DNA from: Alphaproteobacteria bacterium
Lineage (GTDB): Bacteria > Pseudomonadota > Alphaproteobacteria > Caulobacterales > Aquidulcibacteraceae
DNA: 35,788 nucleotides
Reading direction: 5' to 3'
NCBI GenBank assembly: GCA_027488965.1
Contig: JAIYAO010000059.1
Coordinates: 1-35,788, forward strand
The first letter of the stretch is position 1. The number at the start of each line of letters is the position of its first letter. The translations under genes and the position numbers were made by a program. The notes beneath the pieces were generated by a model. That model was not told the DNA's origin and did no database searches. It saw only the letters and a list, made by a program, of their open reading frames with translations. This document shows positions 939 through 22,627 of this stretch, in pieces.

Positions 939-1553
939 ATGTGCAATCGCTACCGCGCAGCCGCCATCAAAGCAGGCCTGCTTCCTGACGTGTTCGATCA
1001 CCGCAAGGTGAAGATCCGCTGGCCGGACATCTCCGAAGAGATGTTTCCGGACCGCGTCGGCCTGGTGGCCCGGCTTGATGAGAACGGCAAGATGGCCCCG
1101 GACGCGATGCGCTGGGGTTTCCCAAAGGTGCAGACGAGCTACGTCACCAATGTGCGCAACGCCGCAAGCGGGTACTGGAAGCCGTGGCTCAAGACGGAAT
1201 ACCGTTGCCTGGTGCCGGTGACGGAGTTCGCAGAGTGGAGCCCCGGACCGCCGAAGGGGGACCGCTGGTTTGCGCGCGCCGATGGCGACGTGATGATGTT
1301 TGCGGGGATCTGGCGGCCATGGACCGGGACGCGCGGAACGAAGGCTGCTCCTGCCGAGGGCGAGCACAGGCTGTTTGCCTTCCTGACCACGACGCCCAAC
1401 GCCGTCGTGGCGCCGATACATCCGAAAGCGATGCCAGTGGTGCTGGAACGAGCTGACTGGGATGCCTGGCTCACCGGGGCGCCGGAGGAGGCGCTTGCAC
1501 TTCAGCGGCCTGCGGGGGACGACGTACTTCGATTGCTTCCCCCCGCTGCTTAG
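939..1553 (+). CDS. SRAP-domain protein (YedK/HMCES type)
   Basis: SRAP proteins crosslink covalently to abasic sites in single-stranded DNA through the amino group and thiol of Cys2 and so shield them from cleavage. The 204-residue product starts MCNRY, giving Cys2 once Met1 is removed. The other active-site positions are visible by comparison with E. coli YedK: Asn71 in TNVRNA, Glu99 in the FAEW motif (YedK FEW, Glu105) and His161 in the PIHPKAMPVVL motif (YedK His160). The length is slightly short for the family. The ATG at 939 is fixed because Cys must be residue 2. It lies three bases after the unknown 96-residue gene. In a region that also holds a phage recombination cassette and two secreted nucleases, a role at damaged or foreign DNA is likely. 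Cytoplasmic. Confidence 0.93.
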   Translation: MCNRYRAAAIKAGLLPDVFDHRKVKIRWPDISEEMFPDRVGLVARLDENGKMAPDAMRWGFPKVQTSYVTNVRNAASGYWKPWLKTEYRCLVPVTEFAEWSPGPPKGDRWFARADGDVMMFAGIWRPWTGTRGTKAAPAEGEHRLFAFLTTTPNAVVAPIHPKAMPVVLERADWDAWLTGAPEEALALQRPAGDDVLRLLPPAA

Positions 1554-1892
1554 CAGGGCGCGGCTCATCCCCAAGCTGAGCGCGAAATCCGTCAGCGGGA
1601 TTTTCCGCCGGACGGTGCCGAGGGCGACGATGGCTCTGACGTCGCGGAGGTCCCGGACCTAAGCTGCCTCGACCCTGCTGCCGCAAAGGATTAGGCCAGA
1701 GCCGCCTCGCGCTTCACGGCGGCACAATGGATAGCCAGGGAAGCGGCTTCGGATGAAGAAGATGGCCGGCTAGGGCCATGTAACGAAGTAGATCGCAAGG
1801 CCTGCCTCGCGGTTGCACTCGACCTTTGGCCGTCACGTCATTGTCGCGAGAATGTGACACCGCCATAGGGTGGCGCTTTGGAGGATTCTCGC
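1554..1892. other. Intergenic stretch without a gene
   Basis: No frame on either strand looks like a real gene. Just before the nuclease gene, 1861-1875 can form a short hairpin (CGCCA, loop TAGGG, TGGCG), followed at once by the GGAGG ribosome binding site at 1879-1883. I see no confident promoter. Confidence 0.5.
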
Positions 1893-2663
1893 GTGCGTGT
1901 GTTTCTTGCAATCATCCTCCTCCTGGTGACGCCGGCGCCTGCCTTTGCCTGGGGCCAGATCGGCCATCGCGTGACCGGTGCGATCGCTCAGCCATTGCTG
2001 ACCCGCAAAGCCGCCCGTGCGATCTACGCAATCATCGGCGAGGAGACCCTTGCAGAGGCTTCCACCTGGGCCGACGAGATGCGATCCAACCCCGAGCCAT
2101 TCTGGCAGTCCACTGCCAATCCATGGCACTACGTGACGGTGCCAGTCGGGAAGACTTACGCAGATGTCGGCGCGCCTGCAGAAGGAGATGCGGTTACGGC
2201 GCTTGAGCGCTTTGCGCAGACCCTCAAGGATCCCAAGGCGCCTCTCGCGGACAAGCAACTCGCACTGCGCTTCACGGTGCACATTATCGGCGACCTTCAC
2301 CAGCCGCTGCACGCCGGCAACGGTACAGACAAGGGTGGCAACGACATTCGGGTGACGTTCTTCCGCGATCCCACAAACCTGCACGCGGTGTGGGACTCGG
2401 GACTGATTGATCGGCGGCAGCTCTCCTACAGCGAGTATGCCGCATTTTTGCGGAACCGACTTGATGACGACCTCCGGCGACAATGGTCGACGCCCGATCC
2501 GCGGGTCTGGATCGCCGAGAGCGCGAGCCTTCGAGATCGGATCTATCCTGCAGGCGATCAGCTCAGCTGGGACTACGCCTATCGCTCCAATCCCATCGTA
2601 GATGAACGCCTTTTGCAGGGTGGGGTGCGCGTGGCGGCATACTTCAACGAGCTCTTCCGGTAG
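1893..2663 (+). CDS. Secreted S1/P1-type zinc nuclease
   Basis: S1/P1 nucleases hydrolyse single-stranded DNA and RNA and 3'-nucleotides with a three-zinc centre. The 256-residue precursor has a signal peptide (residues 1-19, ending PAPAFA) and the mature protein would start with Trp20, the N-terminal zinc ligand of this family. The remaining ligands are all present: His25 (GQIGHR), Asp61 (WAD), His79 (NPWHY), His130, Asp134 and His140 (HIIGDLHQPLH), His164 and Asp168 (LHAVWDSG). I chose the GTG at 1893 because GGAGG lies nine bases upstream; the TTG at 1878 overlaps that ribosome binding site. The enzyme should act in the periplasm or outside the cell. The next secreted protein, an SH3/MBL hydrolase, lies about 300 bases downstream, and both may work on extracellular nucleic acid. 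Confidence 0.95.
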   Translation: MRVFLAIILLLVTPAPAFAWGQIGHRVTGAIAQPLLTRKAARAIYAIIGEETLAEASTWADEMRSNPEPFWQSTANPWHYVTVPVGKTYADVGAPAEGDAVTALERFAQTLKDPKAPLADKQLALRFTVHIIGDLHQPLHAGNGTDKGGNDIRVTFFRDPTNLHAVWDSGLIDRRQLSYSEYAAFLRNRLDDDLRRQWSTPDPRVWIAESASLRDRIYPAGDQLSWDYAYRSNPIVDERLLQGGVRVAAYFNELFR

Positions 2664-2665
2664 TC

Positions 2666-2947
2666 TTGTCCGCTCGACGTTGGGTCGAGGAAGCCTTGAA
2701 AGCAGAAGAGGTCTCCTCGGCACGGTACGCCGTGGAGCCCGGCGGACCGCCGCTGCTTGAAGCGCCTGTTCAAGAAAAACGACGCACTGTCGCGGTTGCC
2801 ACTGAGGTGGGGCTCAGCGTCGCCACCATTCGCCAGCGTGCGCACGCGTTGGGATTCTCCTTCCGGACCGCGAGGCGATGCGAGTTTGGTGCAATCGCCC
2901 CGTGGGTGAACGGCGCTCCTCAAACAGGTATTTCTGTGAGAAGGTAG
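2666..2947 (+). CDS. Doubtful ORF with HTH-like segment
   Basis: An open frame of 93 codons fills the gap between the nuclease gene and the MBL gene. It begins with TTG two bases after the previous stop and has no recognisable ribosome binding site. Residues about 42-65 (VAVATEVGLSVATIRQRAHA) read like a helix-turn-helix of the type that follows 'x-x-A-x-E-x-G-L-S-x-x-T-I-R'. The rest is not recognisable. It could be a small DNA-binding protein, a remnant of a longer regulator, or non-coding sequence that happens to stay open. Confidence 0.25.
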   Translation: MSARRWVEEALKAEEVSSARYAVEPGGPPLLEAPVQEKRRTVAVATEVGLSVATIRQRAHALGFSFRTARRCEFGAIAPWVNGAPQTGISVRR

Positions 2948-2969
2948 GAGCGTCCGGTGGGGATTCGCC

Positions 2970-4331
2970 ATGCTGAAAGCAGACCGCAACCTCGTCCGCG
3001 CTCTGCGCCCTTTACTGGTCGCCATTGGGCTCCTCTCGGCAGGAGAGGCGATTGCGGACGACGTAGTTCCCAGCGACCGCGTGGTTTCCGGAGTTCACGT
3101 CAGGCGACAGCCCGCCAGCAGCTCCACCTCCATAGACATCCTGGAACCCGGGGAGCGGCTCACGCTCATTGAACCAGCCGGCCGCTGGTACAAGGTGAAA
3201 TTGCCTGACGGGCGCGTCGGCTACGTGAGCCGTGCGTGGACTATGGTTGAGACTACGCCCGAGCCCGAACCTCTCTCGCCGACGGTCGATGGACCTCCAC
3301 CGACGCCCTCCACTGAAAGTGGCTCAACATTTACGGTGCACGCAATCGACGTCGGAACGGGGCTGGCGATCCTTGTGGAAGGCGCGGACTTCACGCTCTT
3401 GTACGACGGTGGCAGCAATGACGACCTAGCGCGCGGCGACGCCAACCGGCTGCTGGCCTATCTCCGCCACATCCGTCCCGACCTCACCCAGATCGACCAT
3501 CTCGTGCTCAGCCATCCGCACCGCGACCACGTCGAGCTCCTGCCCGACCTGTTTGATTCCTACGCGGTCAGGCACGTGTGGGATTCAGGCGCCGTGAACC
3601 CCATTTGTGGCTACCGTGCTTTCCTCAGGAAGATCGCGGACGAACCGGATGTCTCCTATCATGACGCGAGTGGCCTACAGGCGCCGCTCCGCGCCAGATT
3701 TGAGCGCAAGAGCTGCTACGGCGAAAGCTGGGGGCCGGAGACGATCGAAATTGATCGCGCCGACGGCATCTCTCCTGCGCCGGTGCCCCTGGGCGCAGAG
3801 GCGAGCATGGTCATCCTCCACGCTGATGCCGGCGATCACGGCGACTTCAATGAGAACACAGTGGTTGCGCGCCTGGCGCTCGGCAGCGTCAGCGTGCTGC
3901 TGGCAGGAGATGCAGAAGGCGGCGGTCGGCAGAAGCCGCAGGATCCGCCCGAAGCGGGGTCTGTCGAGCAGAAGCTCATTGAGTGCTGCGCCGCAGCTCT
4001 GACCTCCAACATCCTCATCGTCGGCCACCACGGGAGCAAGACTTCCTCTCGAGCGGCGTTTCTCGATGAAGTTCGTGCGACGATGTATGTCGTGTCCTCG
4101 GGGCCTAAGCGCTATGGTTCGGTGACATTGCCGGACAATGACGTGATCGAAGAGCTGGAGCGCCGCGGCGCGGTGTGGCGCACGAACGTATCGGACAGTG
4201 CTTGCGCTACTTTCGATCGCAAAATCGGCCCGGATGCGGATGGCCGCGCCGGCGGGTGCGACAATGTTCGGATCGAAATCTCCGCTGACGGACACTTCAG
4301 CGCGACTTACTTCCGGCCTGCAGACGAGTGA
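2970..4331 (+). CDS. Exported SH3 plus ComEC-like MBL hydrolase
   Basis: The 453-residue protein has an N-terminal signal peptide (about residues 1-29), a bacterial SH3 domain at about 34-92 (VHVRRQPASSSTSIDILEPG, then WYKVKLPDGRVGYV), a Pro/Thr/Ser linker at about 94-118, and a metallo-beta-lactamase domain from about 121 to the end. The metal motif HPHRDH gives His182, His184, Asp186 and His187; Asp314 lies in LLAGDAE and the histidine pair 353-354 in VGHHGSKTSS. The last two motifs are those of the ComEC/Rec2 C-terminal hydrolase, a proposed nuclease that degrades the non-transported DNA strand. There is no ComEC membrane channel here. The SH3 domain would tether the enzyme to the cell wall or another periplasmic partner. 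A nuclease or phosphodiesterase activity is inferred from the family. Confidence 0.88.
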   Translation: MLKADRNLVRALRPLLVAIGLLSAGEAIADDVVPSDRVVSGVHVRRQPASSSTSIDILEPGERLTLIEPAGRWYKVKLPDGRVGYVSRAWTMVETTPEPEPLSPTVDGPPPTPSTESGSTFTVHAIDVGTGLAILVEGADFTLLYDGGSNDDLARGDANRLLAYLRHIRPDLTQIDHLVLSHPHRDHVELLPDLFDSYAVRHVWDSGAVNPICGYRAFLRKIADEPDVSYHDASGLQAPLRARFERKSCYGESWGPETIEIDRADGISPAPVPLGAEASMVILHADAGDHGDFNENTVVARLALGSVSVLLAGDAEGGGRQKPQDPPEAGSVEQKLIECCAAALTSNILIVGHHGSKTSSRAAFLDEVRATMYVVSSGPKRYGSVTLPDNDVIEELERRGAVWRTNVSDSACATFDRKIGPDADGRAGGCDNVRIEISADGHFSATYFRPADE

Positions 4332-4823: not shown

Positions 4824-5255
4824 CTAATCCAGCATGAGATCGGTCATGGTGGGGCGTCGCACGCGGTAAGCGCGATCGGCTCCATGAGCGCGCGAACTCA
4901 CGACCCAGCCTCGTTTCCGAGCGATGGCGCCGAAGATTGCGCCCCGGATCGAGTGTGGCTGCCATCCCGAGACCAGGCGGAGTTCCGCGATCGTCGCACC
5001 CTGACGACGCTTCATCAGAGCAATCATCGCGTCTGTCTTTGTAGACCCGGTGGGATCGGGCCCCTTGCGCGCAGCGCTGCCCTTGCCGCGGCGGGGTTCG
5101 GTGCGAAGGTCCTGGCGGGATGGTGTTGTCGGGTGACGTTTCTGAAGGGTTGCAGGATCTGGCTCGCTATCCGGCCAGACCATGAGGTCCAGAAGCTCTG
5201 GCGCGGGACATTTCGCTGGCCCGGGTCTGGGCGTGCGCTTAGTCGCTTTTCGCAC
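4824..5255 (-). CDS. DUF3489 domain protein
   Basis: The 143-residue protein has a basic, Pro-rich, low-complexity N-terminal half and a C-terminal DUF3489 domain (about residues 74-134): it starts KTDAMIALMKRRQGATIAEL and continues through a GWQPHSIRGAI segment and an RAYRV ending. The pattern resembles a winged helix-turn-helix, so DNA binding is likely, but the function is unknown. The start is decided by a GTG at 5255 that has GGGAGG six bases upstream and overlaps the end of the HNH gene by 17 bases. It is the last gene of the Gp157-RecT-HNH cassette. In my knowledge of alphaproteobacteria this domain turns up repeatedly next to phage-type recombination genes. Confidence 0.85.
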   Translation of the reverse strand: MRKATKRTPRPGPAKCPAPELLDLMVWPDSEPDPATLQKRHPTTPSRQDLRTEPRRGKGSAARKGPDPTGSTKTDAMIALMKRRQGATIAELRLVSGWQPHSIRGAIFGAIARKRGWVVSSRAHGADRAYRVRRPTMTDLMLD

Positions 5256-5610
5256 TGGGATCCTCCCGCGGTAGAACGAGCCCGTCCATTCGCTTTCTGA
5301 GGTGTTTTGCGAACCCCCTGGCGGGTGTGCGACGGGATCGACCAGTTTCGTGATGCAGGCGTTGGCGCTCAGCTTTTGCGATGCGTTTGAGATCGAGGCG
5401 CGTCTTGTCGCTATGGCAGGAAGCGCACAGCGCGACCAGATTTGTCCGCTCATTCCCGCCGCCCAGACCGAGCGGGATCACGTGGTCAATCTCCGCTTCG
5501 CTGAGCGCACATCTGCAGGCGAGACACAGGCCTCCTTGTTCTGTGAGGATTCTCCTGCGCAGCCATGGTGTGGGCTTGAGCCTTGGCGTCGGCACAAAGG
5601 GTGGCCTCAT
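5239..5610 (-). CDS. HNH endonuclease
   Basis: A 123-residue protein of the HNH nuclease family. After a basic N-terminus (about 1-25) come two CxxC-type zinc pairs (CLACRC at about 29-34 and CASC at about 62-65), with the core EIDHVIPLGLGGGNERTNLV between them, which carries the catalytic His of the beta-beta-alpha-metal fold. The C-terminus is basic. Its ATG overlaps the recT stop in an ATGA arrangement and its 3' end overlaps the DUF3489 gene, so it is translated as part of the cassette. Similar HNH enzymes nick or cut DNA during phage packaging or recombination. The substrate here is unknown. Confidence 0.92.
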   Translation of the reverse strand: MRPPFVPTPRLKPTPWLRRRILTEQGGLCLACRCALSEAEIDHVIPLGLGGGNERTNLVALCASCHSDKTRLDLKRIAKAERQRLHHETGRSRRTPARGFAKHLRKRMDGLVLPREDPSAKSD

Positions 5611-6659
5611 GATGCCCCCTCTTGGCTGGAAGCTTCATCGCCTTGTTCGGAGATCCGGCCTTCGCGGGCCTCGTGACGGCTTGGCGCTCTTGCGACGCCG
5701 CCGAGAGCTGTGATGCGATGGTCGATCGCTGCCTTGACGGCAAACGCAAGGCATTCGTCCCGGAGCCAAAGCGCGCCCCAGGTGGTGCGGTTCGACGTGA
5801 CAAAGGTTTGGACGGATCGGACGTCGGATAGGCCATCCAGATGGTGTTCAATTCGATCAAGAAGGTCGAGAAGCGCGACCCTCTCAGGGCCGCCCTCCAT
5901 GCACAACCAGAACGCGGCGCCGGACAATGCGCCGTCTCCGTGACCAGCCCCACCGGCACCCTGGGGGGAGTGGGTGCCGGGATCGAGCGCATCACCCTGG
6001 TCGGCGACATTGGGACGAGAAGTCGCAGGTGCGAATTCGGCGCCGGTCACCCGGGAGGCCAATCGCGCGCGGTCGCCTTCCTCACTGGCGTAGAGGCCCG
6101 AGAGGCGTTCGGGCCAGCCACGGCGCAAGGCCTGGGCCTCGGCGCACTTGGCGAGCATCAGCCGGCCCATTTTCTCCCATGAGTCCGGGAGGCGGGCGCC
6201 TGCGCCCCGCGCATCGGTTGAGGGGAGGGGCGCAAACTCGTCCCACCAGGCTTCGCCGCCCACGGCGTGCCATCGCCTCCCAGACTGTTTCCAGAGCGTG
6301 ACCTCCGCCCTGACCAGCCCGCTGGGGTTGGTCAGGGCATCGCGTCTGCGGCGGCTGATAACGATCTTCGGCGCCGTTTCCATGGGCCGGTAATCGCCAT
6401 CCCTTGCAGCGAGGCTCCGCAAGCCGTCGATGGTCGTGATGAAGAGGACGCTGCGCCCCGGGCCTGAGGGGTCGCGGACGACGGCGCTGAGCTGGCGGCG
6501 CAGCGGATCAAGCCCCGTTCGGTCCGCGATGGCCACAAGTTGCTCGAACTCTTCGGTCGTGAGCGTCGCCCCGACGGTCCTTCGAAGCAGGTCGCGTTGG
6601 GCGCTGGTGAGGGCTGGCGGAGCGCCGGCCGCCGCACCGCGGTTTTGGCGGACAGCCAT
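5607..6659 (-). CDS. recT: RecT/Redbeta-family single-strand annealing protein
   Basis: This protein anneals complementary single strands in phage-type recombination. The 350-residue product has the Bet-family core: an N-terminal segment with GLDPLRRQL and TTIDGLRSLAARDG motifs (about 49-91), a WWDEFAPL segment, and the conserved WEKMGRLMLAKCAEAQALRR block (about 162-181) followed by GLYASEE. The C-terminal 150 residues vary in this family and probably recruit partners. I chose the ATG at 6659 because AGGAGG lies six bases upstream; it overlaps the stop of the Gp157 gene as TAATG. No partner exonuclease (lambda Exo or RecE) is visible; the HNH protein follows directly. Cytoplasmic. Confidence 0.9.
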   Translation of the reverse strand: MAVRQNRGAAAGAPPALTSAQRDLLRRTVGATLTTEEFEQLVAIADRTGLDPLRRQLSAVVRDPSGPGRSVLFITTIDGLRSLAARDGDYRPMETAPKIVISRRRRDALTNPSGLVRAEVTLWKQSGRRWHAVGGEAWWDEFAPLPSTDARGAGARLPDSWEKMGRLMLAKCAEAQALRRGWPERLSGLYASEEGDRARLASRVTGAEFAPATSRPNVADQGDALDPGTHSPQGAGGAGHGDGALSGAAFWLCMEGGPERVALLDLLDRIEHHLDGLSDVRSVQTFVTSNRTTWGALWLRDECLAFAVKAAIDHRITALGGVARAPSRHEAREGRISEQGDEASSQEGAS

Positions 6660-7183
6660 TAGCGCCTCCTGATGGTGAGCGATTGCACACCGTTGGAGAG
6701 GCATGCGCCCTCGACCGTTTCCCCGGCCTCCAGCGCCGCCTTGAGGCCGCGACGGTCCAGGACCGGTTTGGTCAAGTAGAAGCGGGCGGGCAGGTCCGCT
6801 TCACTGTCGATGAGCAGGGCCGAAGGCCGGTGCACAAGCGACAATGTCGCTAGGGGGCGCTCGAGCTTTCGTGTTTCGAGCAGCATGAGCGCCTGCTCCA
6901 GTATGGCGCGGCGCGCTTCGCGGCGGCGAACGAAGCGGGACTGGCGGGCTTGCACCGCGGCCAGCGCCGTCTCGATCCCGGAAATGAGGCAGTCGTCGTC
7001 GAGGTCATCCGCGAGCAGACGGTCGATGGCCTCGAAGAGGGACGTGGCCCCCTCAGCGAGGTCGTTGATCAGCTGCTTGTCTTCAAGCAGGTCGCTGCGG
7101 CTGGCGAGGCTGTCCTTCAGGACAGCAAAAGCCCGCATTTCGGTCGCGATGCTGGCGGCGCTGGCATCTGCATGCTGGTACAT
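6659..7183 (-). CDS. Siphovirus Gp157-family protein
   Basis: The 174-residue protein matches the Gp157 family, first known from streptococcal phages where it was linked to phage resistance. The first half is helical and acidic with likely coiled-coil character; the C-terminal part shows the family signature of a KPVLDRRGLKAALEAGETVE stretch followed by GA-L and a short beta ending. The ATG at 7183 has GGAG eight bases upstream and is preferred to the ATG at 7213, which falls inside the loop of a perfect inverted repeat. It is the first gene of the four-gene cassette, and its stop overlaps the recT start. The molecular function is unknown. Confidence 0.85.
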   Translation of the reverse strand: MYQHADASAASIATEMRAFAVLKDSLASRSDLLEDKQLINDLAEGATSLFEAIDRLLADDLDDDCLISGIETALAAVQARQSRFVRRREARRAILEQALMLLETRKLERPLATLSLVHRPSALLIDSEADLPARFYLTKPVLDRRGLKAALEAGETVEGACLSNGVQSLTIRRR

Positions 7184-7664: not shown

Positions 7665-8489
7665 GTGCGCGTTTCGGCAGTTCGAGCCCTGCTCGGAGCC
7701 CCGGTGCATGGCCTGATAGCCCATCGGGCGCTAATCATGCGCCTAGTCATTCGGGAATGGCAAGCGAAGTATCGCGGTGCCTACCTCGGGCTTGCATGGG
7801 CGATCCTTACGCCATTGCTGATGGTGGGAGTGTATGCATTTGTATTCTCCAACATTTTTAAGTCTCGTTGGACGGTCCCGCCTGATGCGCAGACAAACTT
7901 CGTACTTTTGCTTTACTCGGGCATTCTAATATTTGGCATTTTCAGCGAGTGCATCTCTCGGGCTCCCACACTCGTTCTTGAAAACGTGACGTACGTCAAG
8001 AAGGTGGTATTTCCGCTCGCGATATTGCCTGTCGTGGCGATGGGGGGCGCGCTGTTCAATTTCGCTCTAGGTTTTGGCGTCCTGCAAGCGATTGGCGTTG
8101 CCACGTTTGGACTGCCTCCGCTGACCACAATACTGTTGCCGGTCGTGCTTGCTCCGATGTTGCTTTTCACGCTGGGCATGAGTTGGGCGTTGGCCGCTAT
8201 TGGGGTGTACAATCGCGATTTGCGGCACATCGTGGGGGTGCTGGTGTCTCTAATCCTCTTTCTGAGTCCGATCTTCTATCCCGCGAGTGCGTTTCCCCTG
8301 GGATATGCGCACTTGTTGTCTCTGAACCCGATGACCGCAGTTCTTGAGGGCTCCAAGAGTGTCATGTTTTGGGGCGAGCTCCCGAAGTTGAGTGACCTCG
8401 CCTTCTCCTACCTTTGGGGTTTCTTGGTGGCGATTGGTGGGTATGGGGTGTTCGCTCGCCTCCGAGTAGGGTTCGCGGATGTCATCTGA
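7665..8489 (+). CDS. wzm: ABC-2 polysaccharide export permease (Wzm type)
   Basis: The 274-residue protein is the membrane half of an ABC exporter that moves a finished, lipid-linked polysaccharide across the inner membrane. It belongs to the ABC-2 family: a cytoplasmic N-terminal region with the LVIREWQAKYRGAYLGLAW segment leading into about six membrane segments, and the typical SPIFYPASAFP stretch before the last loop (about residues 203-213). The GTG at 7665 has AGGAG seven bases upstream. Its last 11 bases overlap the ATPase gene, which implies coupled synthesis of the two subunits. It opens an eight-gene operon of glycan genes. Confidence 0.95.
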   Translation: MRVSAVRALLGAPVHGLIAHRALIMRLVIREWQAKYRGAYLGLAWAILTPLLMVGVYAFVFSNIFKSRWTVPPDAQTNFVLLLYSGILIFGIFSECISRAPTLVLENVTYVKKVVFPLAILPVVAMGGALFNFALGFGVLQAIGVATFGLPPLTTILLPVVLAPMLLFTLGMSWALAAIGVYNRDLRHIVGVLVSLILFLSPIFYPASAFPLGYAHLLSLNPMTAVLEGSKSVMFWGELPKLSDLAFSYLWGFLVAIGGYGVFARLRVGFADVI

Positions 8490-9819
8490 AGAGACCATTC
8501 GCCTGGAGAACGTCGGCAAAACATACCGTATCTTCAAGCGGCCGGAAGACCGCCTGAGGCAAATGTTCGCCTTGGGGCGTCGAAAATACTACTCCGAGTA
8601 TGTCGCATTGAAGGATGTATCGTTCTCCGTTCGGCGGGGCGAGGCTGTCGGCATTGTCGGTCGCAATGGTGCGGGAAAATCGACGCTTCTCCAACTTATT
8701 TGCAACACAGCGAAGCCGACATCGGGCAGCATCCGGACGAATGGCCGGATTGCAGCTCTTCTGGAGCTTGGCGCGGGCTTCAATCCAGAGTTTACGGGTC
8801 GCGAGAATGTTTTTCTTGCCGCTACGATCCTCGGTCTCTCGACCGCACAGGTGCGCGAACGCTACGATCAAATTGTCGATTTCGCAGGAATTGGCGACTT
8901 CATTGATCAGCCGGTCAAGCTTTACTCGAGCGGCATGTATGCGCGCCTCGCCTTCGCAGTCGCCGCGCATGTCGACGCAAGCGTGCTGATCGTGGATGAA
9001 ATACTCTCGGTGGGAGACGCTGCGTTTACGCAGAAGTGCATGCGCTTTGTTCACGAGTTCAAGAAGACCGGGACGCTGCTCTTTGTGTCACACGATACGA
9101 GCGCCGTAACTGGGCTTTGTGACCGGGCGATTTGGATTGATCGTGGTGAGATGCGGGCCGAGGGGCCTGCATCTGACATTGTGCACCAGTATATCGCGTC
9201 GCTGTACGGTGAGGACGGTGGGGAAGACTTCAAAATCGGCGGGGAGCGAAAGCGGCGATTGCGGCCAGTGTCAGATCCGCGCGACAATGTCCTCAAGCAA
9301 TCGCGGTTTCGGAATGAAATCGAGGTTTTCGATTTTGATCCCGACGGGCCTTGGTTTGGGAAGCGAGGCGCTACGATCGTTGACGTGCGACTTCTGGACG
9401 AGCGGGGGGCGGCGGTAGCCGCTTTGGTAGGCAGTGAAGTATCCGTGCTCGAAGTGCGTGCGGTCGTTCACGCGACGCTGGATCGACCAATTATCGGCTT
9501 CTTCGTCAAGAACCAGCTCGGACAGAATCTTTTTGGCGACAATACGTTCCTGACCTACCGGAGCAATCCGCAGCCTGCGGTCGCGGGGCAATTGATCGTT
9601 GCTCGCTTTCGCTTTCAGATGCCGTATCTGCCGCAAGGAGACTATTCGGTTAACGCGGCGATCGCCAATGGCTCGCAGTGGGACCACGTCCAGCATCACT
9701 GGATAGATGACGCCGTGTTCTTTAGGGTGGACGCCTCGCATGTCGCAAAGGGTCTCGTGGGGATCCCAATGCTGGATATTGAGCTCAGTGTCAGCGCTCA
9801 GGGGGAAGTCGCTTCATGA
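8479..9819 (+). CDS. wzt: ABC exporter ATPase with cargo domain (Wzt type)
   Basis: The 446-residue protein has an N-terminal ATPase domain with Walker A GRNGAGKST (61-69), the H/KST-exporter hallmark LLELGAGFNPEFTGREN (94-110), the signature YSSGMYARL (149-157), Walker B LIVDE (170-174) and the switch His205. After a linker comes a C-terminal beta-sandwich of the Wzt_C type (about 285-440). In E. coli O8/O9a this domain binds the chemically capped non-reducing end of the O-antigen and selects finished chains for export. Its presence suggests that the glycan made here is also end-modified, and the next gene encodes a methyltransferase domain. Its stop overlaps the next start as ATGA. Confidence 0.95.
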   Translation: MSSEETIRLENVGKTYRIFKRPEDRLRQMFALGRRKYYSEYVALKDVSFSVRRGEAVGIVGRNGAGKSTLLQLICNTAKPTSGSIRTNGRIAALLELGAGFNPEFTGRENVFLAATILGLSTAQVRERYDQIVDFAGIGDFIDQPVKLYSSGMYARLAFAVAAHVDASVLIVDEILSVGDAAFTQKCMRFVHEFKKTGTLLFVSHDTSAVTGLCDRAIWIDRGEMRAEGPASDIVHQYIASLYGEDGGEDFKIGGERKRRLRPVSDPRDNVLKQSRFRNEIEVFDFDPDGPWFGKRGATIVDVRLLDERGAAVAALVGSEVSVLEVRAVVHATLDRPIIGFFVKNQLGQNLFGDNTFLTYRSNPQPAVAGQLIVARFRFQMPYLPQGDYSVNAAIANGSQWDHVQHHWIDDAVFFRVDASHVAKGLVGIPMLDIELSVSAQGEVAS

Positions 9820-12800
9820 GCGCGCATTCGACGTTGCGGTTTGAAAGTCCGGCGCAGGCCCAAGCGTATACCGGCGAGCGCTTCACCACGTCCATGACGG
9901 GACTAATCGAACATGAGCACAAGCATCGCTACCTGTTGGCCGCGCGGCTCTGCGAGGCCCGTACAGTGCTCGATGTGGCCTGCGGAGAGGGTTATGGATC
10001 TGCCCTTCTGTCGAGCGTGGCCGCCAAGGTTTTTGGTGTCGATATCTCGGAGGAATCAATTGCCTACGCAAAGAGCGCATACCCCAGAGAGAATCTCTCC
10101 TTCCTCTGCGCCAAGGCGACAGCCATACCGTTGCCGGACAGCAGTGTCGATGTCGTAGTCAGTTTCGAAACCCTTGAGCACTTCGTCGAGCATGACGACT
10201 TTATGAGAGAGATCCGCCGGGTGCTCATACCTGGCGGGTTGCTGATCATGTCATCCCCAATCAAGGGCGTATACTTCGAGGGGGACACCAATCACTTCCA
10301 CCTGCGCGAACTTACAGCCCCCGAGTTTGTTCGCTTCATCAGCGACTCTTTTCCGTTCGCCCGTTTCTGGGAGCAGAAGGCGACGATGGGCTCCGTCATC
10401 TCGGCCGTTGAGCCAAACGGCGATGGAGTGGTCTCCCATCGACGTCTGGACGACGAATCTTTTTCAATCCGTGAAGGTGGGCTGGACAGGGCAGTCTATC
10501 TGCTGGCGTTGGCGTCAGATGAACCCTTGACCGCCACGTTTGACTTTTCCGTCCTAGATGATGTCCGATACGCCGAAAGAATGGCGGGTATTATCGCGTA
10601 CAACGAGCACCTGCTTGGCGAACAACGTGCGGCGCTTGCGCGTGAAGAGGGCGCTCGGAACTCCGCCGAGGCTGAGTGCCGGGAACTGGAAACTAAAGTC
10701 GCCAGGCTCGAGAGTGACCGGCGTATTGAGAATGCGCGGCTGTCTAGCGATCTGAAGGCTTGTGAGCGAAAACTGGCAGTGGCCACGGCGGAGGCGGCAA
10801 AAGCGCTTGCATTGGCGGCCCAGGTGGCAAGCTTAGAAGCGCGGATTCGCGCGATCCATCATTCTACCAGCTGGACCGTTACCCGGCCGTTCCGCGCCGT
10901 TGGCCGGCTTCTCATGGCCGCGAAGTTCGTGGCGCGACATTCGACAAACTATGTCGCACGGCGAGGCATTCGTTCTGCAGTAGCGGATGTCCTAGATGTA
11001 AGGCGCTGGATGCGCCTCATTGTCGAGGGCCCGCGCGCCAGTCCGGTTCCAACAACTGCCCAAGAAACGCCCAAGGATGCGCTGCGATCTATGCGGCCAG
11101 CGGAAAGCGTTGCGGGCACCCTGCGTCCGCATATCGTCATTCTCGCCGAGCTGTCACTTCCGCAGTGTGCAAAATATCGAGTCTGGCAGAAGAAGGAGCA
11201 TCTCGAGCGTCTGGGCTTTGCTTGCACAGTCTTGAACTGGTGGGAGCATGGCGCTGCCAGGGATGCTCTGCAGACAGCAACTGGCGCAGTATTCTATCGG
11301 GCGCCCGGCTACCCTGATGTTGTTGCGCTGATTGAAGAAGCACGCCGGCTCCAAATCCCGACTTTTTGGGAGGTGGACGACCTCATCTTTGATCAGAAGT
11401 ACTACGAGGCGAATGGCAACCTGTACAGGTTGGATCCGAAGACTCGGCAGGAGATCCTTGAGGGCGTGCCGCTGTATCGACACGCGCTCCTGCGTTGCGA
11501 GTATGGCATCGCATCCACGGCCCGTTTGGCGTCAGCAATGGTGGAGGCCGGTAAAGAGCGGGCATTCGTTGTGGAGAATGCGCTTGATGAGGAAACGCTA
11601 GCGCTTGCCGAGGCAGTCCATGCGGCTCGGGTGACGAGGCCGAAGCGAGAGACCGTTCACATCGTTTATGGTTCTGGGTCGCGGGCGCATGATCGCGACT
11701 TTGAAGAGGCGGCGGAGGCTCTCGCAACGGTCCTCGCGTCGCGTCCGGAGGTCAGGCTCGATATCATAGGCGAGCTCACATTGCCTCAATCTCTCGCGCC
11801 TTTTGCGGACAGAATCAGCCGTCGCCCGCTCACAGCATTCCCTGCCTACCTTGCGCAGCTCGGCGAGGCTGACATTAGCATTGCGCCCTTGGAGGCCAGT
11901 GAGTTCAACGAGGCAAAGAGCAACATCAAGTTCCTTGAGGCTTCAGCGTTGGGATTGCCGTCCGTCTGCTCGTCACGTTCTGCGTTTGCCGGTGCAATTG
12001 AGCAAGGGACGACCGGCTTTCTCGCAGATGACTACCCAAGTTGGGTGAGTGCGCTCGAGCTGTTGGTGCGGGACCCACTGCTGCGCGAGAATGTTGGGGC
12101 GCACGCGAGACGCGCGGTTCTCGACAATTACTGCCCTCGGTCAATCGCACATCGTCAAGTGGCGCCTGTTCTAGAGCAGACGGCTTCTGGGCGACCCCGG
12201 TCTGCAGACGGGGCGCTGCGCGTTCTTGAGGCCAACGTCTTTTTCGCACCGCAGAGCTATGGTGGGGCGACAATTGTCGCGGAACAGGTGGCCGTCCGCT
12301 TGAAGGCGTTGGGAGCTGAGGTCGCGGTCTTCTCAACGTGTCCGGACCCTTTGCCGGCCTATAGTTTGCTTCGTCATCAATCGAAGGGCTTGAACTGCTT
12401 CGGCGTGGCGTTGCCTCAGTCGACAGAGCGAGAGCTCGACTACAAGAACCCGCAAGTGAAGCTTGTATTTTCGCGAGTGCTGGAGGCCGTGAATCCTCAT
12501 GTCGTGCATCTGCATTCCATACAGGGATTGAGCGCATCAGTCGCAGAAGCCTGCCGCGAGGCGGGTATCCCTTATGTTGTGACTTTGCACGATGCCTGGT
12601 GGATCTGCGAACGACAGTTCATGATTAAGGCAGATGGCCGCTATTGCTTTAACAGGCAAGTCTCGCCCGAGATCTGCGAAGGCTGCGTCAGCGACATCAC
12701 CTTCACCCGCGAGCGCACCACGTATCTGAAGTCGATCCTCGATGGTGCGGCGGCAGTGCTCACGCCAAGCGCCTTTCACCGGCAGCTGCACATAGAAAAT

Positions 12801-13451
12801 GGCGTCCCGGCAGATCGCATTCATGTGAACCGGAATGGCGTTCAGAAGCCGGCCGCCCCCTTGGTGAGGCCGATTGAGGGCCGGATCAGGTTCGGATTTG
12901 TCGGCGGGGGAGGGCCGATCAAGGGAGGGCCCCTCATTGTGCATGCGTTCCGTGACCTTCCCCACAAGAACTACACCCTGACTATCGTCGACAATACGCA
13001 GAACTTGGGTTTTTCGTCGATCAAAGAGGACGACTGGGCGGTGCCCGGAGAGCTTTCAATCGTGCCGGCGTACACGCAGGAGACCCTGGACGATTTTTTC
13101 CTCTCTATCGATGTGCTGCTGTTTCCGACCCGCTGGAAAGAGAGCTTCGGCTTGACGGTCCGCGAAGCGCTCGCTCGCAATGTCTGGGTTATCGCTACAG
13201 ATGCGGGCGGGGTGGTCGAAGACATCGTGGATGGGCAGAACGGGACTATCTTGCCCTTGACGGAGGAACTGGATCACGCTCCCCTGCGGGAAGCTGTCCG
13301 TCGTCTGCTGGATGACCCTGGGCAACTGGATCGTTTCGCGAACGCCACCGCGGGGTCCATTTTGGATTTTGAAGCCCAAACGAATGAATTGCTTCAGTTT
13401 TTGCGTGGAGTAGTGCGGGGTAGCCCCAACACTCCACCGCATTTCTCGTAG
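9816..13451 (+). CDS. Methyltransferase, coiled-coil, double glycosyltransferase fusion
   Basis: A 1211-residue multidomain protein. Residues about 30-160 form a class I SAM methyltransferase with VLDVACGEGYG (51-61) as the SAM-binding loop. Residues about 255-345 are a charged, Ala/Leu/Glu/Arg-rich coiled coil, closed by the STSWTVTRPFRAVGRLL motif that often joins coiled coils to glycosyltransferases. Residues about 435-790 form a first GT-B-like domain (FWEVDDLIFD; later KSNIKFLEASALGLPSV). Residues about 800-1205 form a second, GT4-like domain with SYGGATIVAEQVA at its start and the E-x7-E motif Glu1109/Glu1117 (ESFGLTVRE). Cytoplasmic, probably membrane-associated. It could elongate the glycan and methylate its end; domain roles are inferred. 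It sits between Wzt and a GT2 gene with an ATGA overlap upstream and a 14-base gap downstream. Confidence 0.92.
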   Translation: MSAHSTLRFESPAQAQAYTGERFTTSMTGLIEHEHKHRYLLAARLCEARTVLDVACGEGYGSALLSSVAAKVFGVDISEESIAYAKSAYPRENLSFLCAKATAIPLPDSSVDVVVSFETLEHFVEHDDFMREIRRVLIPGGLLIMSSPIKGVYFEGDTNHFHLRELTAPEFVRFISDSFPFARFWEQKATMGSVISAVEPNGDGVVSHRRLDDESFSIREGGLDRAVYLLALASDEPLTATFDFSVLDDVRYAERMAGIIAYNEHLLGEQRAALAREEGARNSAEAECRELETKVARLESDRRIENARLSSDLKACERKLAVATAEAAKALALAAQVASLEARIRAIHHSTSWTVTRPFRAVGRLLMAAKFVARHSTNYVARRGIRSAVADVLDVRRWMRLIVEGPRASPVPTTAQETPKDALRSMRPAESVAGTLRPHIVILAELSLPQCAKYRVWQKKEHLERLGFACTVLNWWEHGAARDALQTATGAVFYRAPGYPDVVALIEEARRLQIPTFWEVDDLIFDQKYYEANGNLYRLDPKTRQEILEGVPLYRHALLRCEYGIASTARLASAMVEAGKERAFVVENALDEETLALAEAVHAARVTRPKRETVHIVYGSGSRAHDRDFEEAAEALATVLASRPEVRLDIIGELTLPQSLAPFADRISRRPLTAFPAYLAQLGEADISIAPLEASEFNEAKSNIKFLEASALGLPSVCSSRSAFAGAIEQGTTGFLADDYPSWVSALELLVRDPLLRENVGAHARRAVLDNYCPRSIAHRQVAPVLEQTASGRPRSADGALRVLEANVFFAPQSYGGATIVAEQVAVRLKALGAEVAVFSTCPDPLPAYSLLRHQSKGLNCFGVALPQSTERELDYKNPQVKLVFSRVLEAVNPHVVHLHSIQGLSASVAEACREAGIPYVVTLHDAWWICERQFMIKADGRYCFNRQVSPEICEGCVSDITFTRERTTYLKSILDGAAAVLTPSAFHRQLHIENGVPADRIHVNRNGVQKPAAPLVRPIEGRIRFGFVGGGGPIKGGPLIVHAFRDLPHKNYTLTIVDNTQNLGFSSIKEDDWAVPGELSIVPAYTQETLDDFFLSIDVLLFPTRWKESFGLTVREALARNVWVIATDAGGVVEDIVDGQNGTILPLTEELDHAPLREAVRRLLDDPGQLDRFANATAGSILDFEAQTNELLQFLRGVVRGSPNTPPHFS

Positions 13452-13465
13452 GTGCGGGTGCCATT

Positions 13466-14548
13466 ATGGATGGTCATGAGCGACAGCAGGAGCAGTTACG
13501 CCAGTTAAGAGTGTGGCTGGTGGTGCCGATGTTTCGGGTGACTGCCCATATCGGGGCCGTGCTCCGGAAGGTTCCGCCCTGGGTCGAGGGGGTGGTCTGT
13601 GTTGATGATTGCTGTCCCGAGCGGTCCGGCGACATTGCGAGCGTTAGTCCCTGCTCGGTCGAGACCGTGATCCTGCGACATGAGGTCAACCAGGGTGTCG
13701 GGGGGGCTGTTCTCAGCGGTTATCGCTTTGCAGAGAGCCGTGGGGCCAAGATCATTGTAAAAGTCGATGGCGACGACCAGATGGACCTTCGGTGGCTGGG
13801 GTACCTCGTTCAGCCCATTGCGGCGGGACAGGCTGACTATACCAAAGGGAACAGGTTCTCGACGGCGTCGCACGTGGAAGGGATGCCGCCGCTTAGGATA
13901 TTCGGGAACTCGGTCCTTAGCTTGATGTCAAAATTCTCCAGCGGGTACTGGAAGACTTTTGATCCAACGAATGGTTATACGGCAATCTCGGCCAGAGTGG
14001 TTCGCGAGCTTCTCGGTCGGCGCATTGCGCACCGGTACTTTTTTGAATCTGATATGCTATACCACCTCGGATCGCTTCGCGCTGTGGTGCGCGATATCCC
14101 CATGCCGGCGCGGTATGCGGACGAGCGCAGCAATCTAAACATCATGAAGATCGCGCTCCCGTTTATGCTCTACCACATGCGTAACTCGGCGAAACGCTTT
14201 GTCGGCCAGTACATCGTTAGGGACTTCAACGTAGCGACTCTGGAAGTCGTTGTTGGCTTGGCTTTGCTATCGGCGGGACTTGGGTTCGGCGTGAGTTACC
14301 TCTTTAGTCGACCTGAAGCGGCGGCGGCGGCATCGGCAGGCGTGGTTATGCTCGCAGCCTTGCCCGTGATTCTTGGCGTTCAACTTCTGCTAGCGGCGCT
14401 CAATTTTGACGTGTTGAACGTACCGAAAGACCCCATTCATCCAATGTTGCTGGCGATGGATGCATTCCAGGAGCTCTCGGAGCTTGATTCTACACATGAG
14501 TTGCCCGCGCCTGTTCCGGCGATGCACTCCGCAGAACGGCAAGCGTAG
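13466..14548 (+). CDS. GT2 glycosyltransferase with two C-terminal TM segments
   Basis: The 360-residue protein belongs to the DPM1/GtrB-like branch of GT2, which transfers a sugar from a nucleotide donor to polyprenyl phosphate. The N-terminal GT-A domain shows VVPMF (19-23), the acidic pair in VCVDDCCP (Asp47, Asp48), VNQGVGGAV, and the metal-binding KVDGDDQMD (Asp101, Asp103, Asp104). PTNGYTAI and RYFFESDMLYH are typical of this branch. Two membrane segments follow at about 248-270 and 284-304. Together with the GtrA-like and DUF2142 genes of the same operon it could form a Gtr-type side-group pathway. The donor sugar cannot be told from the sequence. Confidence 0.9.
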   Translation: MDGHERQQEQLRQLRVWLVVPMFRVTAHIGAVLRKVPPWVEGVVCVDDCCPERSGDIASVSPCSVETVILRHEVNQGVGGAVLSGYRFAESRGAKIIVKVDGDDQMDLRWLGYLVQPIAAGQADYTKGNRFSTASHVEGMPPLRIFGNSVLSLMSKFSSGYWKTFDPTNGYTAISARVVRELLGRRIAHRYFFESDMLYHLGSLRAVVRDIPMPARYADERSNLNIMKIALPFMLYHMRNSAKRFVGQYIVRDFNVATLEVVVGLALLSAGLGFGVSYLFSRPEAAAAASAGVVMLAALPVILGVQLLLAALNFDVLNVPKDPIHPMLLAMDAFQELSELDSTHELPAPVPAMHSAERQA

Positions 14549-14625
14549 GCGTCCGAGGCTTCCATGGGGATGCTGTTTTCGATTTCGCCTATGCGTTGCC
14601 GGATGTATACGGGATACTTAACCCA

Positions 14626-16035
14626 ATGAGTGACGCTCGCCGGGTCGGCTGGATCGGCTCCTTTCTCGCGCTCTTTGGCTTGCTGGTGCTTTTCCTCACA
14701 CCGCCAATACAGAGTGCGGATGAGGACAGTCATTTCATTCGCGCCGTTATGGTGTCGCGGCTCGATCTCTCCCTTCATCGCGAGGGGGAGGTAGTCGGCC
14801 AACAGGTGCCGAAAAGCCTTGTGAACTATGTTGAGTCACATCGCTCTTTGGTCAGTGACCCCGACATGCGTTACAGTTATGCGCGCTGGTACCAGGAGAG
14901 CTTCGCGGCCGCCCAGACGGACACAAGCATACTTCACCGATACTCAGGCCAGTCTCTGTCCCCGCTATACTACATGCCTCAGGTGATTGGCGTTTGGGTG
15001 GGTAGGGCGGTTTACGCCCTGACTCCGGCGGACGTGCCTTTCAGCTGGTCTTCACAGTTGTACTTTGCTCGTTTGGGCAACCTTGTCTTTTATGTCTCTT
15101 GCTTCCTATGGGCGATAAAGACTGCTCTGCGCTTCAGGCACCTCTTGGCATTCCTCGCCGTCACTCCAATGGCGCTTAGCCTTGCGGCCTCAGCGAGCTA
15201 TGATGTTTTTGTTGTGTGCACGGCGGTGTGTTTTCTGGCAAAGTGCGTGCAGCTTTGGGATCAGCCTCGTTGGGGGTGGCGAGACTTGGCGGTCTTGGCG
15301 CTCTTGTCCTTCTTTCTTGGACACAACAAGGTAGTCTACGCGCCGTTGCTGCTTGTTCTTTTGGCGGCAGCTCCGTCGTTGGGATGGCGGCAGATCGTTC
15401 CTATTTCCATGGCTTGCGGCGGGCTTGCCTTGGCTGGGGCCGCCGTTAGTTCGGTTTTGTTTGGCTTGCCAGCAAATCCGGCGCTCGAGCAGGCGGTCGA
15501 CGCACAAGCGGCCTATGTTCTAGCAAACCTCCCGCAGATGCCGGGATTGATCCTCACGTCCATTGTCGACCAACGGCAGTATCTCTTCACGAGCACCCTT
15601 GGCAGTTTGGGTTGGTTGAACGCTAATTTTCCTGCTGCGGTCCTCGTTCTCTGGGGCGCCATAGGTGTTTTCGCGGCGACAGCGGACGGCCTAGGTAGCG
15701 CTCCGCTGCAGCGCGCCGTCCTGACCGGTGTGTTGATGTTGGCGGCAGCGGCGATCTCCGCCGCGTTACTGTTTGTCGCAATGTACATCTCGTGGACTTC
15801 TGTCACGACCGGCGTGGGGGTGCCCAAGATCGACAGTGTCCAGGGTAGGTACTTGCTTCCGATCCTGCCCTTCTTTTTGGGCGGAGGGGCCCTGGTGTTG
15901 GGTAAGCTGTCGGGGGGGATTGGGAGCCTGGGCGTCCCAACGCTCACGATCCAGTGCGATGAAGTCCTGCGGGTTGCGTCAACGGTGATGGCGTCCTTGA
16001 TGGTCTTCATGCTTGTGGTAAGATACTGGGTCTAG
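14626..16035 (+). CDS. DUF2142 polytopic membrane protein
   Basis: The 469-residue protein has about ten membrane segments. After the first one comes the family motif: two prolines, then a DEDSHFIRA stretch (in TPPIQSADEDSHFIRAVM), which matches the 'PP-x-x-x-x-DE-x-x-H' pattern of DUF2142. A long periplasmic loop follows. The acidic residues after the first membrane helix resemble the catalytic loop of GT-C glycosyltransferases, so transfer of a lipid-linked sugar in the periplasm is a reasonable inference, not proven. I chose the ATG at 14626; a TTG at 14596 is possible but would add ten non-conserved residues, and neither has a strong ribosome binding site. Confidence 0.85.
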   Translation: MSDARRVGWIGSFLALFGLLVLFLTPPIQSADEDSHFIRAVMVSRLDLSLHREGEVVGQQVPKSLVNYVESHRSLVSDPDMRYSYARWYQESFAAAQTDTSILHRYSGQSLSPLYYMPQVIGVWVGRAVYALTPADVPFSWSSQLYFARLGNLVFYVSCFLWAIKTALRFRHLLAFLAVTPMALSLAASASYDVFVVCTAVCFLAKCVQLWDQPRWGWRDLAVLALLSFFLGHNKVVYAPLLLVLLAAAPSLGWRQIVPISMACGGLALAGAAVSSVLFGLPANPALEQAVDAQAAYVLANLPQMPGLILTSIVDQRQYLFTSTLGSLGWLNANFPAAVLVLWGAIGVFAATADGLGSAPLQRAVLTGVLMLAAAAISAALLFVAMYISWTSVTTGVGVPKIDSVQGRYLLPILPFFLGGGALVLGKLSGGIGSLGVPTLTIQCDEVLRVASTVMASLMVFMLVVRYWV

Positions 16036-16068
16036 TTGTTCGAAATCGGCGTTGTCCGAGAGGGTACT

Positions 16069-17394: not shown

Positions 17395-17400
17395 GGCGCA

Positions 17401-17784
17401 GTGGCTTGTGGAATGCTGAAGCAGCTTGGCTCTTTTGTTCTAGTCGGAGTTGCCGGCGTCGCCACCAACTTCTTGGTGTTTCAAGCTCTGTTGATATTCG
17501 GTGTGCATTACTTGTTGGCGTCTACCTTTGCGTGGCTGACCAGCATGGGGTTGGTTTTTCTACTCAATCGTCGCTTTACGTTTCGTAGTAGCAATTCGTT
17601 GGTTGGTGACCTTTGGCGAACGCTGGTGGTGTACTCCTTTCAACAAGGCGTGGTTCTTGCGGGCTTGTTCGTCAGCGTCAGCTGGGTAGGGTTGTCGCCA
17701 ACGCTTGGCTATTTCGCCGTGCTGCCGTTCGCGGTGCTGATCAGCTTTCTGGGCATGAGGCTGTTCGCCATGCGCCAAGCGTGA
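17401..17784 (+). CDS. GtrA-family membrane protein
   Basis: GtrA proteins are proposed flippases for polyprenyl-phosphate-linked sugars. The 127-residue product has four membrane segments and the family features: a start like FVLVGVAGVATNFLVF (about 11-26), SMGLVFLLNRRFTF (about 48-61) closing the second segment, and a basic C-terminus. The GTG at 17401 follows the previous stop by six bases and has AAGG four bases upstream; an ATG at 17413 is an alternative. Its partner for a Gtr pathway would be the GT2 with two membrane segments at 13466, with DUF2142 as the transferase candidate. Confidence 0.92.
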   Translation: MACGMLKQLGSFVLVGVAGVATNFLVFQALLIFGVHYLLASTFAWLTSMGLVFLLNRRFTFRSSNSLVGDLWRTLVVYSFQQGVVLAGLFVSVSWVGLSPTLGYFAVLPFAVLISFLGMRLFAMRQA

Positions 17785-17800
17785 CTGTTGCAGGACCCTC

Positions 17801-18895: not shown

Positions 18896-18963
18896 CGTTA
18901 CGGCTCGTATGTATGGGCTATTCAAGCCTTAGTAGGCCATTTGCATCTGAGGCTTTACCCCGC

Positions 18964-18994
18964 GGAACGGCCAGCCTAGAAGGCGGCCCGTTCC
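18964..18994 (+). terminator. Hairpin after the polysaccharide operon
   Basis: GGAACGG (18964-18970) pairs with CCGTTCC (18988-18994), with an inner GCC/GGC stem around TAGAA. It lies about 70 bases after the RgpF-like stop. There is no T-run, so an intrinsic terminator is possible but not certain. Confidence 0.4.
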
Positions 18995-19080
18995 TTACAA
19001 AGTTTCTGAGGCGCCCCCTCGGCGTCCCGCGCCGGAAGGTAGAATCAACGCTGTTTAGCCCGATCCTGTTTTCGATGGTA

Positions 19081-19123: not shown

Positions 19124-19135
19124 GGCTTCAGCCCG

Positions 19136-20665: not shown

Positions 20666-20673
20666 GGTTTTCG

Positions 20674-22616: not shown

Positions 22617-22627
22617 CGTTTCAGGCA

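What the first reader, a model, noticed from the sequence alone, without database searches (positions are those of the whole stretch)
4824..7183. Isolated, tightly coupled Gp157-RecT-HNH-DUF3489 cassette
Seen: four genes with overlaps at every joint (TAATG, ATGA, 17 bases), no integrase, no structural phage genes, no partner exonuclease. Known: RecT/Redbeta proteins normally work with an exonuclease, and Gp157 has been linked to phage resistance. Inference: a domesticated recombination or anti-phage unit in which HNH and DUF3489 proteins replace the exonuclease.
Basis: partly seen in the sequence, partly recalled or inferred. Interest (0 to 1): 0.55.

Follow-up and report, generated by a model that had tools for sequence, protein, structure and literature searches.

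The report
Phage recombination genes in sugar-coat locus
Four tightly packed genes of phage type (a DNA-annealing protein, a usual partner of it, a DNA-cutting enzyme and a probable DNA-binding protein) sit on a bacterial chromosome with no phage seen around them, next to genes for the cell's sugar coat; the first three form a lineage kept intact in a few related bacteria, probably the recombination kit of a small mobile element.

Summary
In detail: Gp157, RecT/Bet, HNH and DUF3489 genes form one overlapping minus-strand run at 4824-7183. None of the scanned window genes is an integrase or capsid-type gene, and the genome has no YqaJ exonuclease. Gp157-annealase with HNH is a known phage arrangement, and genomes with prophage-type relatives also lack YqaJ, so nothing need 'replace' an exonuclease. 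DUF3489 is no fixed partner: in 26 of 29 sampled loci of the order it sits by a serine recombinase. The published resistance linked to Gp157 is tied to a noncoding origin. New here: the module belongs to one lineage, found in 6 of 60 genomes of the family, outside a recognisable prophage, beside or near surface-glycan or RTX-secretion genes, uninterrupted where complete, and with signs of purifying selection. In two genomes it adjoins a methyltransferase-DUF5681-terminase triad; a third has two of those genes, a fourth the triad about 14 kb off. Best reading: recombination kit of a prophage-derived mobile element parked in surface loci. Whether it works, or helps reshuffle surface genes, is untested.

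The parts
6659..7183 (-). Gp157 gene (174 aa; alternative start at 7213), related to a family named Mu Gam-like end protection
   Evidence: Pfam Sipho_Gp157 2e-13; PHROG 253 5.6e-15; low-confidence AlphaFold model with a long helix 63-104
5607..6659 (-). RecT/Bet single-strand annealing protein (350 aa)
   Evidence: Pfam RecT 1.6e-12; PHROG 2780 3.3e-20; NCBIfam bet_lambda 75.4 bits, just under its 76.95 cut-off
5239..5610 (-). HNH nuclease (123 aa); D42-H43, N57, H66 and C29/C32/C62/C65 invariant in the four sequences aligned
   Evidence: Pfam HNH 1.4e-9; alignment A2; the catalytic and zinc reading of these residues is recalled
4824..5255 (-). DUF3489 gene (143 aa, GTG start), probably a DNA-binding protein strayed from serine-recombinase elements
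   Evidence: Pfam DUF3489 1.3e-17; GGAGG before GTG; 26 of 29 relatives lie beside a serine recombinase; DNA binding is inferred (weak PaaX-like match of a relative below cut-off)
7665..9819 (+). Wzm/Wzt-type polysaccharide exporter next to the cassette (context)
   Evidence: Pfam ABC2_membrane, ABC_tran and Wzt_C
9816..25092 (+). mostly surface-glycan genes (methyltransferase/glycosyltransferase, GT2, GtrA, RgpF, dTDP-sugar enzymes, nucleotidyltransferase), with a NUDIX and a DUF3108 gene among them; lower in G+C to 19 kb (context)
   Evidence: Pfam; composition
939..4331 (+). left flank: SRAP, S1/P1 nuclease, SH3-metallo-beta-lactamase genes (context)
   Evidence: Pfam; PHROGs

Best explanation
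The run is a phage-type strand-annealing recombination operon that has become a chromosomal lineage outside recognisable prophages in this bacterial family, most likely as the recombination part of a small prophage-derived mobile element. Gp157 would bind or shield DNA ends (Gam-like), HNH would nick or cut, and the RecT/Bet protein would anneal complementary single strands, so that element DNA or incoming DNA recombines with homologous sequence without a dedicated YqaJ exonuclease. The element settles in surface-glycan or RTX-secretion loci, in some genomes beside a methyltransferase-DUF5681-terminase triad. In the window the partner genes are lost or elsewhere, and a DUF3489 gene, normally part of serine-recombinase elements, has been added. 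Shown: gene families, order, overlaps, one lineage, open frames, pN below pS, location. Inferred: biochemical steps, mobility, present activity.
For: Six of 60 family genomes carry this RecT. Gp157, RecT and HNH follow in this order in five; in G034 the contig ends inside RecT. RecT of five (G034 left out as truncated) and Gp157 of five form one group against ten and eight other sequences (support 99/99 and 100/98), with compatible branching. pN/pS is 0.34-0.62 in all 35 pairwise comparisons, pS near saturation. Nearest entries are about 31% identical in 50,697 phage records and 32% in 72,556 plasmid records; three pattern scans of IMG/VR gave no lineage member. In G657 and G022 six genes (MTase, DUF5681, TerL, HNH, RecT, Gp157) stand together behind the same host genes but are 36-59% identical, while those host genes are 79-92% identical: two divergent copies of one kind of element in one place. 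DUF3489 beside a serine recombinase in 26 of 29 loci, with the MTase in 9, DUF5681 in 3 and TerL in 1, ties DUF3489 to the same element world.
Against: No recombinase, convincing flanking repeat or empty site was found for the window copy, so mobility is not shown here. The triad is absent near G000 and G519. G022 has one more gene than G657 between the shared host genes and the element, and the right flanks differ, so the site is the same only on the left and approximately. G022 and G034 share MTase and TerL at 83% but HNH only at 57%, so the parts do not always travel together. Selection between divergent copies may have acted in an unsampled phage or donor. Structure models were too poor to test the Gam-like or DNA-binding readings.
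Confidence: 0.5

Rival explanations
1. Ordinary prophage remnant: the early recombination genes of a temperate siphophage were left behind after deletion of the rest and have no function now.
For: Related Gp157-RecT pairs lie in a temperate phage, Rhizobium phage RHph_N28_2, in G524 and G102 with Pfam-confirmed terminase and in IMG/VR contig L112. The MTase-DUF5681-TerL triad beside some cassettes is phage-like. G519 has a broken second HNH copy. The left flank has genes with phage-family matches.
Against: Genes uninterrupted in all six genomes as far as the contigs go, pN below pS, one lineage and repeated surface-locus position are more than random decay would give.
Confidence: 0.27
2. A resident module that promotes exchange or gene conversion of surface-glycan and S-layer genes: HNH starts the event, RecT anneals incoming homologous DNA, and strains thereby change phage receptors.
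For: All six cassettes lie beside or near surface genes. A GT2 gene is 1.7-10.2 kb away in 4 of 6, a strong CapD paralogue 0.5-6.3 kb away in 4 of 6; combined chance 0.009 and 3e-6 if independent. The low-G+C glycan block begins at the cassette's edge in the window.
Against: Five of six genomes are one genus, so the positions are not independent; in the two other genomes of each count no such gene is on the contig. Surface loci gather foreign genes anyway (recalled). No recombination event was observed.
Confidence: 0.12
3. An anti-phage defence unit.
For: The HNH domain has weak likeness to restriction and defence nucleases in PADLOC (best E 1.3e-6); a related serine-recombinase element in G053 carries a GajA/GajB pair.
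Against: Gp157, RecT and DUF3489 match no PADLOC model at E 0.001. The published Gp157 link rests on a noncoding element (PMC6356513, passages).
Confidence: 0.06

Closest known systems
Phage recombination modules with a Gp157 or Gam-like gene upstream of an annealase and HNH genes nearby, as described for Firmicutes (PMC8093625, passages)
   Same: Gene kinds and order; Gp157-RecT with NinB and/or HNH also in five alphaproteobacterial loci
   Different: Not in a recognisable prophage; no NinB in the overlapping run; DUF3489 added; own lineage of RecT and Gp157
Lambda Red (Bet-Exo-Gam) and RecET
   Same: Bet/RecT-type annealase (bet_lambda 75.4 bits) with a Gam-like upstream gene
   Different: No YqaJ exonuclease in the genome
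DUF3489-DUF2924-serine recombinase elements, some with MTase-DUF5681-TerL
   Same: Shares DUF3489 with the window; shares the triad with sister cassettes
   Different: The window cassette has no recombinase, DUF2924 or triad
duf1071 annealase genes in transposon-like regions of Gram-negative bacteria (PMC8093625, one passage)
   Same: Phage annealase outside prophages
   Different: Another annealase family; no surface-locus link in the passage seen

Membership tests
RecT/Bet single-strand annealing proteins | RecT domain above Pfam cut-off | tested here: met
   47.9 bits, cut-off 24
RecT/Bet single-strand annealing proteins | NCBIfam bet_lambda equivalog cut-off | tested here: not met
   75.4 bits, cut-off 76.95
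Red/RecET recombination system | partner exonuclease (YqaJ family) | tested here: not met
   0 of 14 genomes, controls E. coli and B. subtilis positive; other exonuclease families not searched
Phage Gp157-annealase-HNH module | gene kinds and order | tested here: met
Prophage | integrase and structural genes nearby | tested here: not met
   26 of 32 called window ORFs scanned; one PHROG 'tail protein' match of a lactamase-fold gene is noted; left side limited to 4.8 kb by the contig end
HNH nuclease | HNH domain with conserved motif residues | tested here: met
   catalysis itself not testable
DUF3489 serine-recombinase module | serine recombinase (and DUF2924) adjacent | tested here: not met
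   window locus L016 has none; 26 of 29 others have the recombinase
Known anti-phage systems | match to PADLOC system proteins | tested here: not met
   no match for Gp157, RecT, DUF3489 at E 0.001; HNH only over its short domain
Gam-like end protection | dsDNA-end binding | not testable with these tools
   only PHROG 253 similarity; model too weak

The most novel reading that the evidence does not exclude
A chromosomal lineage of phage annealase cassettes works as a resident exchange engine of surface-glycan and S-layer loci: HNH opens the locus, RecT anneals homologous DNA brought in by phage particles or transformation, and the linked methyltransferase and terminase (where present) protect and package the region, so that coat genes and the cassette spread together as a minimal element that needs no integrase.
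Probability: 0.1. Interest if true: 0.8.

Novelty: new variant of a known kind. Interest (0 to 1): 0.4.

Why it matters
If the lineage is active, it would be a phage recombination kit kept by bacteria outside prophages and tied to loci that can decide phage receptors, which gives a testable route for how surface coats are exchanged. If not, the work still shows what such a cassette is made of, that lack of a YqaJ partner is shared by its prophage-type relatives as sampled, and that DUF3489 belongs with a recurrent serine-recombinase element.

Tried and rejected
Replacement of the exonuclease by HNH/DUF3489: rejected, because genomes with the prophage-type relatives lack YqaJ too and DUF3489 was not found beside the other cassettes. 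RecE-type and other exonuclease families were not searched.

Attachment site or target duplication: the repeat search of 4200-7800 gave only imperfect pairs of 14-31 bases, none bracketing the cassette convincingly. Empty site: the lactamase gene left of the cassette has no match in one and a weak 79-residue match in the other of the two further genomes of the genus; its one good match (54%) is in G029; the other flank genes were not searched for. tRNA target: none in the window. Promoter-like sites: none; terminator-like: six, against 2.7 (sd 1.8) in shuffles.

Structure: DUF3489 model pLDDT 52, Gp157 model pLDDT 64; fold search of the latter gave no match with E under 1. PDB sequence search: none for RecT at E 0.01 or DUF3489 at E 1; for HNH 13 chains with HNH-type domains such as a maturase, Cas9 and McrA.

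Genes of the sister loci were sought by local tblastn, which would miss very divergent ones; only part of the flanking genes of the five sister cassettes was scanned with Pfam, the rest was read by eye. G514 has a tyrosine recombinase about 6.8 kb from its cassette; it scores best against the XerD/XerC-type families and I take it as a host gene.

For the RecT tree the truncated G034 row was dropped. In one search the G514 RecT match showed a stop; one search shows a 349-codon open frame there, so it was not counted as broken. The crude codon-usage caller did not call HNH and DUF3489 in the window, nor the three cassette genes in L006 and L009; this may mean foreign codon usage or a weak caller.

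Full report
What is there. On its minus strand gp157 (6659-7183), recT (5607-6659), an HNH gene (5239-5610) and a DUF3489 gene (4824-5255) follow one another with overlaps of 1, 4 and 17 bases. All four pass Pfam's cut-offs. The annealase is close to the Bet type: 75.4 bits against NCBIfam bet_lambda, 1.5 bits below its cut-off. Gp157 matches the PHROG named Mu Gam-like end protection. DUF3489 begins with GTG behind a GGAGG.

Surroundings. To the left lie SRAP, S1/P1 nuclease and SH3-metallo-beta-lactamase genes. To the right, 482 bases from gp157, begins a polysaccharide locus: Wzm, Wzt, methyltransferase/glycosyltransferase, GT2, GtrA, RgpF, dTDP-sugar enzymes and a nucleotidyltransferase, then subtilase, oxidoreductase, aquaporin-type, ELM1-type, lactamase-fold and GreA genes. 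G+C is 0.59-0.69 in the cassette's kilobase windows and 0.565-0.594 from 8 to 19 kb. Of 32 called ORFs 26 were scanned with Pfam; none is an integrase, terminase, portal, capsid or tail family. In PHROGs the SRAP gene and the left lactamase-fold gene match phage families, the latter among others one named tail protein. What lies left of base 1 is unknown.

Relatives. A search of the 60 genomes held for the family found this RecT in six: G000 (the window's), G022, G034, G514, G519 and G657. That MAG was also the only relative found by a pattern scan of genome contigs. In five of the six Gp157, RecT and HNH stand in this order; in G034 the contig ends within RecT. DUF3489 was not found next to any of the other five. 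G519 has a broken second HNH. A single-protein search of 385 genomes of the class found two genomes besides the window's, and an alignment search of 398 genomes of the order found 16 with any RecT match, six of them the family members above.

Phage relatives. More distant RecT genes come with Gp157 in Rhizobium phage RHph_N28_2, which has an integrase, and in G102, G392, G612, G524, G535, G673 and G581. Terminase was confirmed by Pfam in G524 and G102; the terminase guessed by eye in G612 had no Pfam match; the others were read as prophage-like by eye, and those of G673 and G581 lie on contigs under 7.1 kb. NinB follows RecT in G612, G524 and G581, HNH genes in G581 and G673 and, by tblastn, G535. 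Gp157 or Gam-like genes upstream of annealases, and HNH genes nearby, are described for Firmicutes phages (PMC8093625, passages); the same passages say that phage RecT in Firmicutes typically comes with an exonuclease. YqaJ is absent from 14 of 14 genomes searched, eight of them with the distant RecT; controls E. coli and B. subtilis were positive. So the missing YqaJ is a feature of the wider RecT group as sampled, not of this cassette alone.

One lineage. In maximum-likelihood trees the RecT of five (G034 left out as truncated) and the Gp157 of five surface-locus genomes form one group against ten and eight other sequences, with support 99/99 and 100/98 and compatible branching. The window's RecT is a long branch, which the program warns about. 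pN/pS lies between 0.34 and 0.62 in all 35 pairwise comparisons of the three genes, with pS near saturation: the proteins were under purifying selection somewhere along these lines. The nearest entries are about 31% identical in 50,697 phage records and 32% in 72,556 plasmid records. Three pattern scans of IMG/VR gave no lineage member: of the 81 loci of the last two (80 of the 96 HNH relatives, and one RecT hit) only one has a clear Gp157-RecT pair, of the distant type.

Surface loci. The six cassettes lie beside or near surface genes: Wzm/Wzt in the window; N-acylglucosamine epimerase and type I secretion in G657; an RTX protein in G022; a CapD-type gene in G034, G519 and G514, with glycosyltransferases in G519 and G514. 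Measured over the six genomes, a GT2 gene lies 1.7-10.2 kb away in 4 of 6 and a strong CapD paralogue 0.5-6.3 kb away in 4 of 6; in the other two of each count there is none on that contig. If independent, the combined chances are 0.009 and 3e-6. They are not independent: five of the six genomes are one genus. Orientation and distance to CapD differ among genomes.

An element. In G657 and G022 the cassette faces a ParB-N methyltransferase-DUF5681-terminase triad. Both stand behind glmM, glmS, an oxidoreductase and an aminotransferase gene (the gl names are my reading by eye); G022 has one further gene in between, and what follows on the right differs. The shared flanking genes are 79-92% identical between the two genomes, the six element genes only 36-59%. 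That fits two divergent copies of one kind of element in one place better than inheritance with the flanks, though very fast evolution is not excluded. In G034 the triad is close to that of G022 (MTase and TerL 83%) but HNH only 57%, and the cassette lies about 14 kb from it, so parts can separate. G514 has the methyltransferase and a short DUF5681 match but no terminase found; G000 and G519 have none of the three nearby.

DUF3489. Thirty-eight of 150 genomes of the order carry it. Of the 62 places listed there, 29 outside the window genome were fetched and examined: 26 have a serine recombinase within about 1.5 kb, nearly always with DUF2924, 9 the methyltransferase, 3 DUF5681 and 1 the terminase. 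Of the three without, one lies at a contig end. The window genome's other copy (contig 126) also has the recombinase, beside a tRNA-Met; the window's copy has not. DUF3489 is thus best read as a stray from a serine-recombinase element related to the triad. One paper in the library names DUF3489 (one passage); that passage says a fold was assigned by computation without naming it.

Function. The link of Gp157 to phage resistance is tied, in the passages of PMC6356513, to a 302-bp noncoding element that acts as a replication origin. PADLOC has no match for Gp157, RecT or DUF3489 at E 0.001. The best reading is therefore recombination: annealing by RecT, end binding by Gp157, nicking or cutting by HNH. 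This is inferred from the families; nothing was assayed.

Verdict. The exonuclease-replacement and anti-phage ideas are not supported. The survey adds a small, maintained lineage outside recognisable prophages, tied to surface loci, which I file as a new variant of a known phage module. Searches of the open-access library for Gp157 with RecT, DUF3489, DUF2924, DUF5681, Gp157 with phage resistance, annealases with HNH, and RecT with O-antigen and S-layer showed no description of it in the listings and passages seen.

Noticed in passing
L061 (G053:C1:3146000-3165500), 7748-17909: Methyltransferase-DUF5681-terminase, then a GajA/GajB (Gabija) pair, then DUF3489-DUF2924-serine recombinase: a recurrent element with a defence cargo.
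   Followed up: partly
L060 7096-19501 and L105 1-1086 (G052:C13): Methyltransferase-DUF5681-terminase-DUF2924-serine recombinase-primase/helicase-major head protein-portal, followed by host-like genes with no tail genes seen by eye: may be a capsid-forming satellite or a cut-down prophage.
   Followed up: partly
G023 contigs C1, C4, C5, C6 (ends): Two near-identically scoring sets of terminase fragments and DUF3489 at contig ends, suggesting a duplicated element.
   Followed up: no
L021 15062-17876 (G000:C126): Serine recombinase, DUF2924 and DUF3489 beside a tRNA-Met in the window's own genome.
   Followed up: partly
window 7200-19000: Lower-G+C polysaccharide block (0.565-0.594 against 0.60-0.75 in the other kilobase windows) that begins at the edge of the cassette.
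   Followed up: partly
L063 18105-18395 and L066 1006-1293: Two small proteins (96 and 95 aa) without any Pfam or PHROG match directly downstream of HNH in G519 and G514, in the place that DUF3489 has in the window.
   Followed up: no
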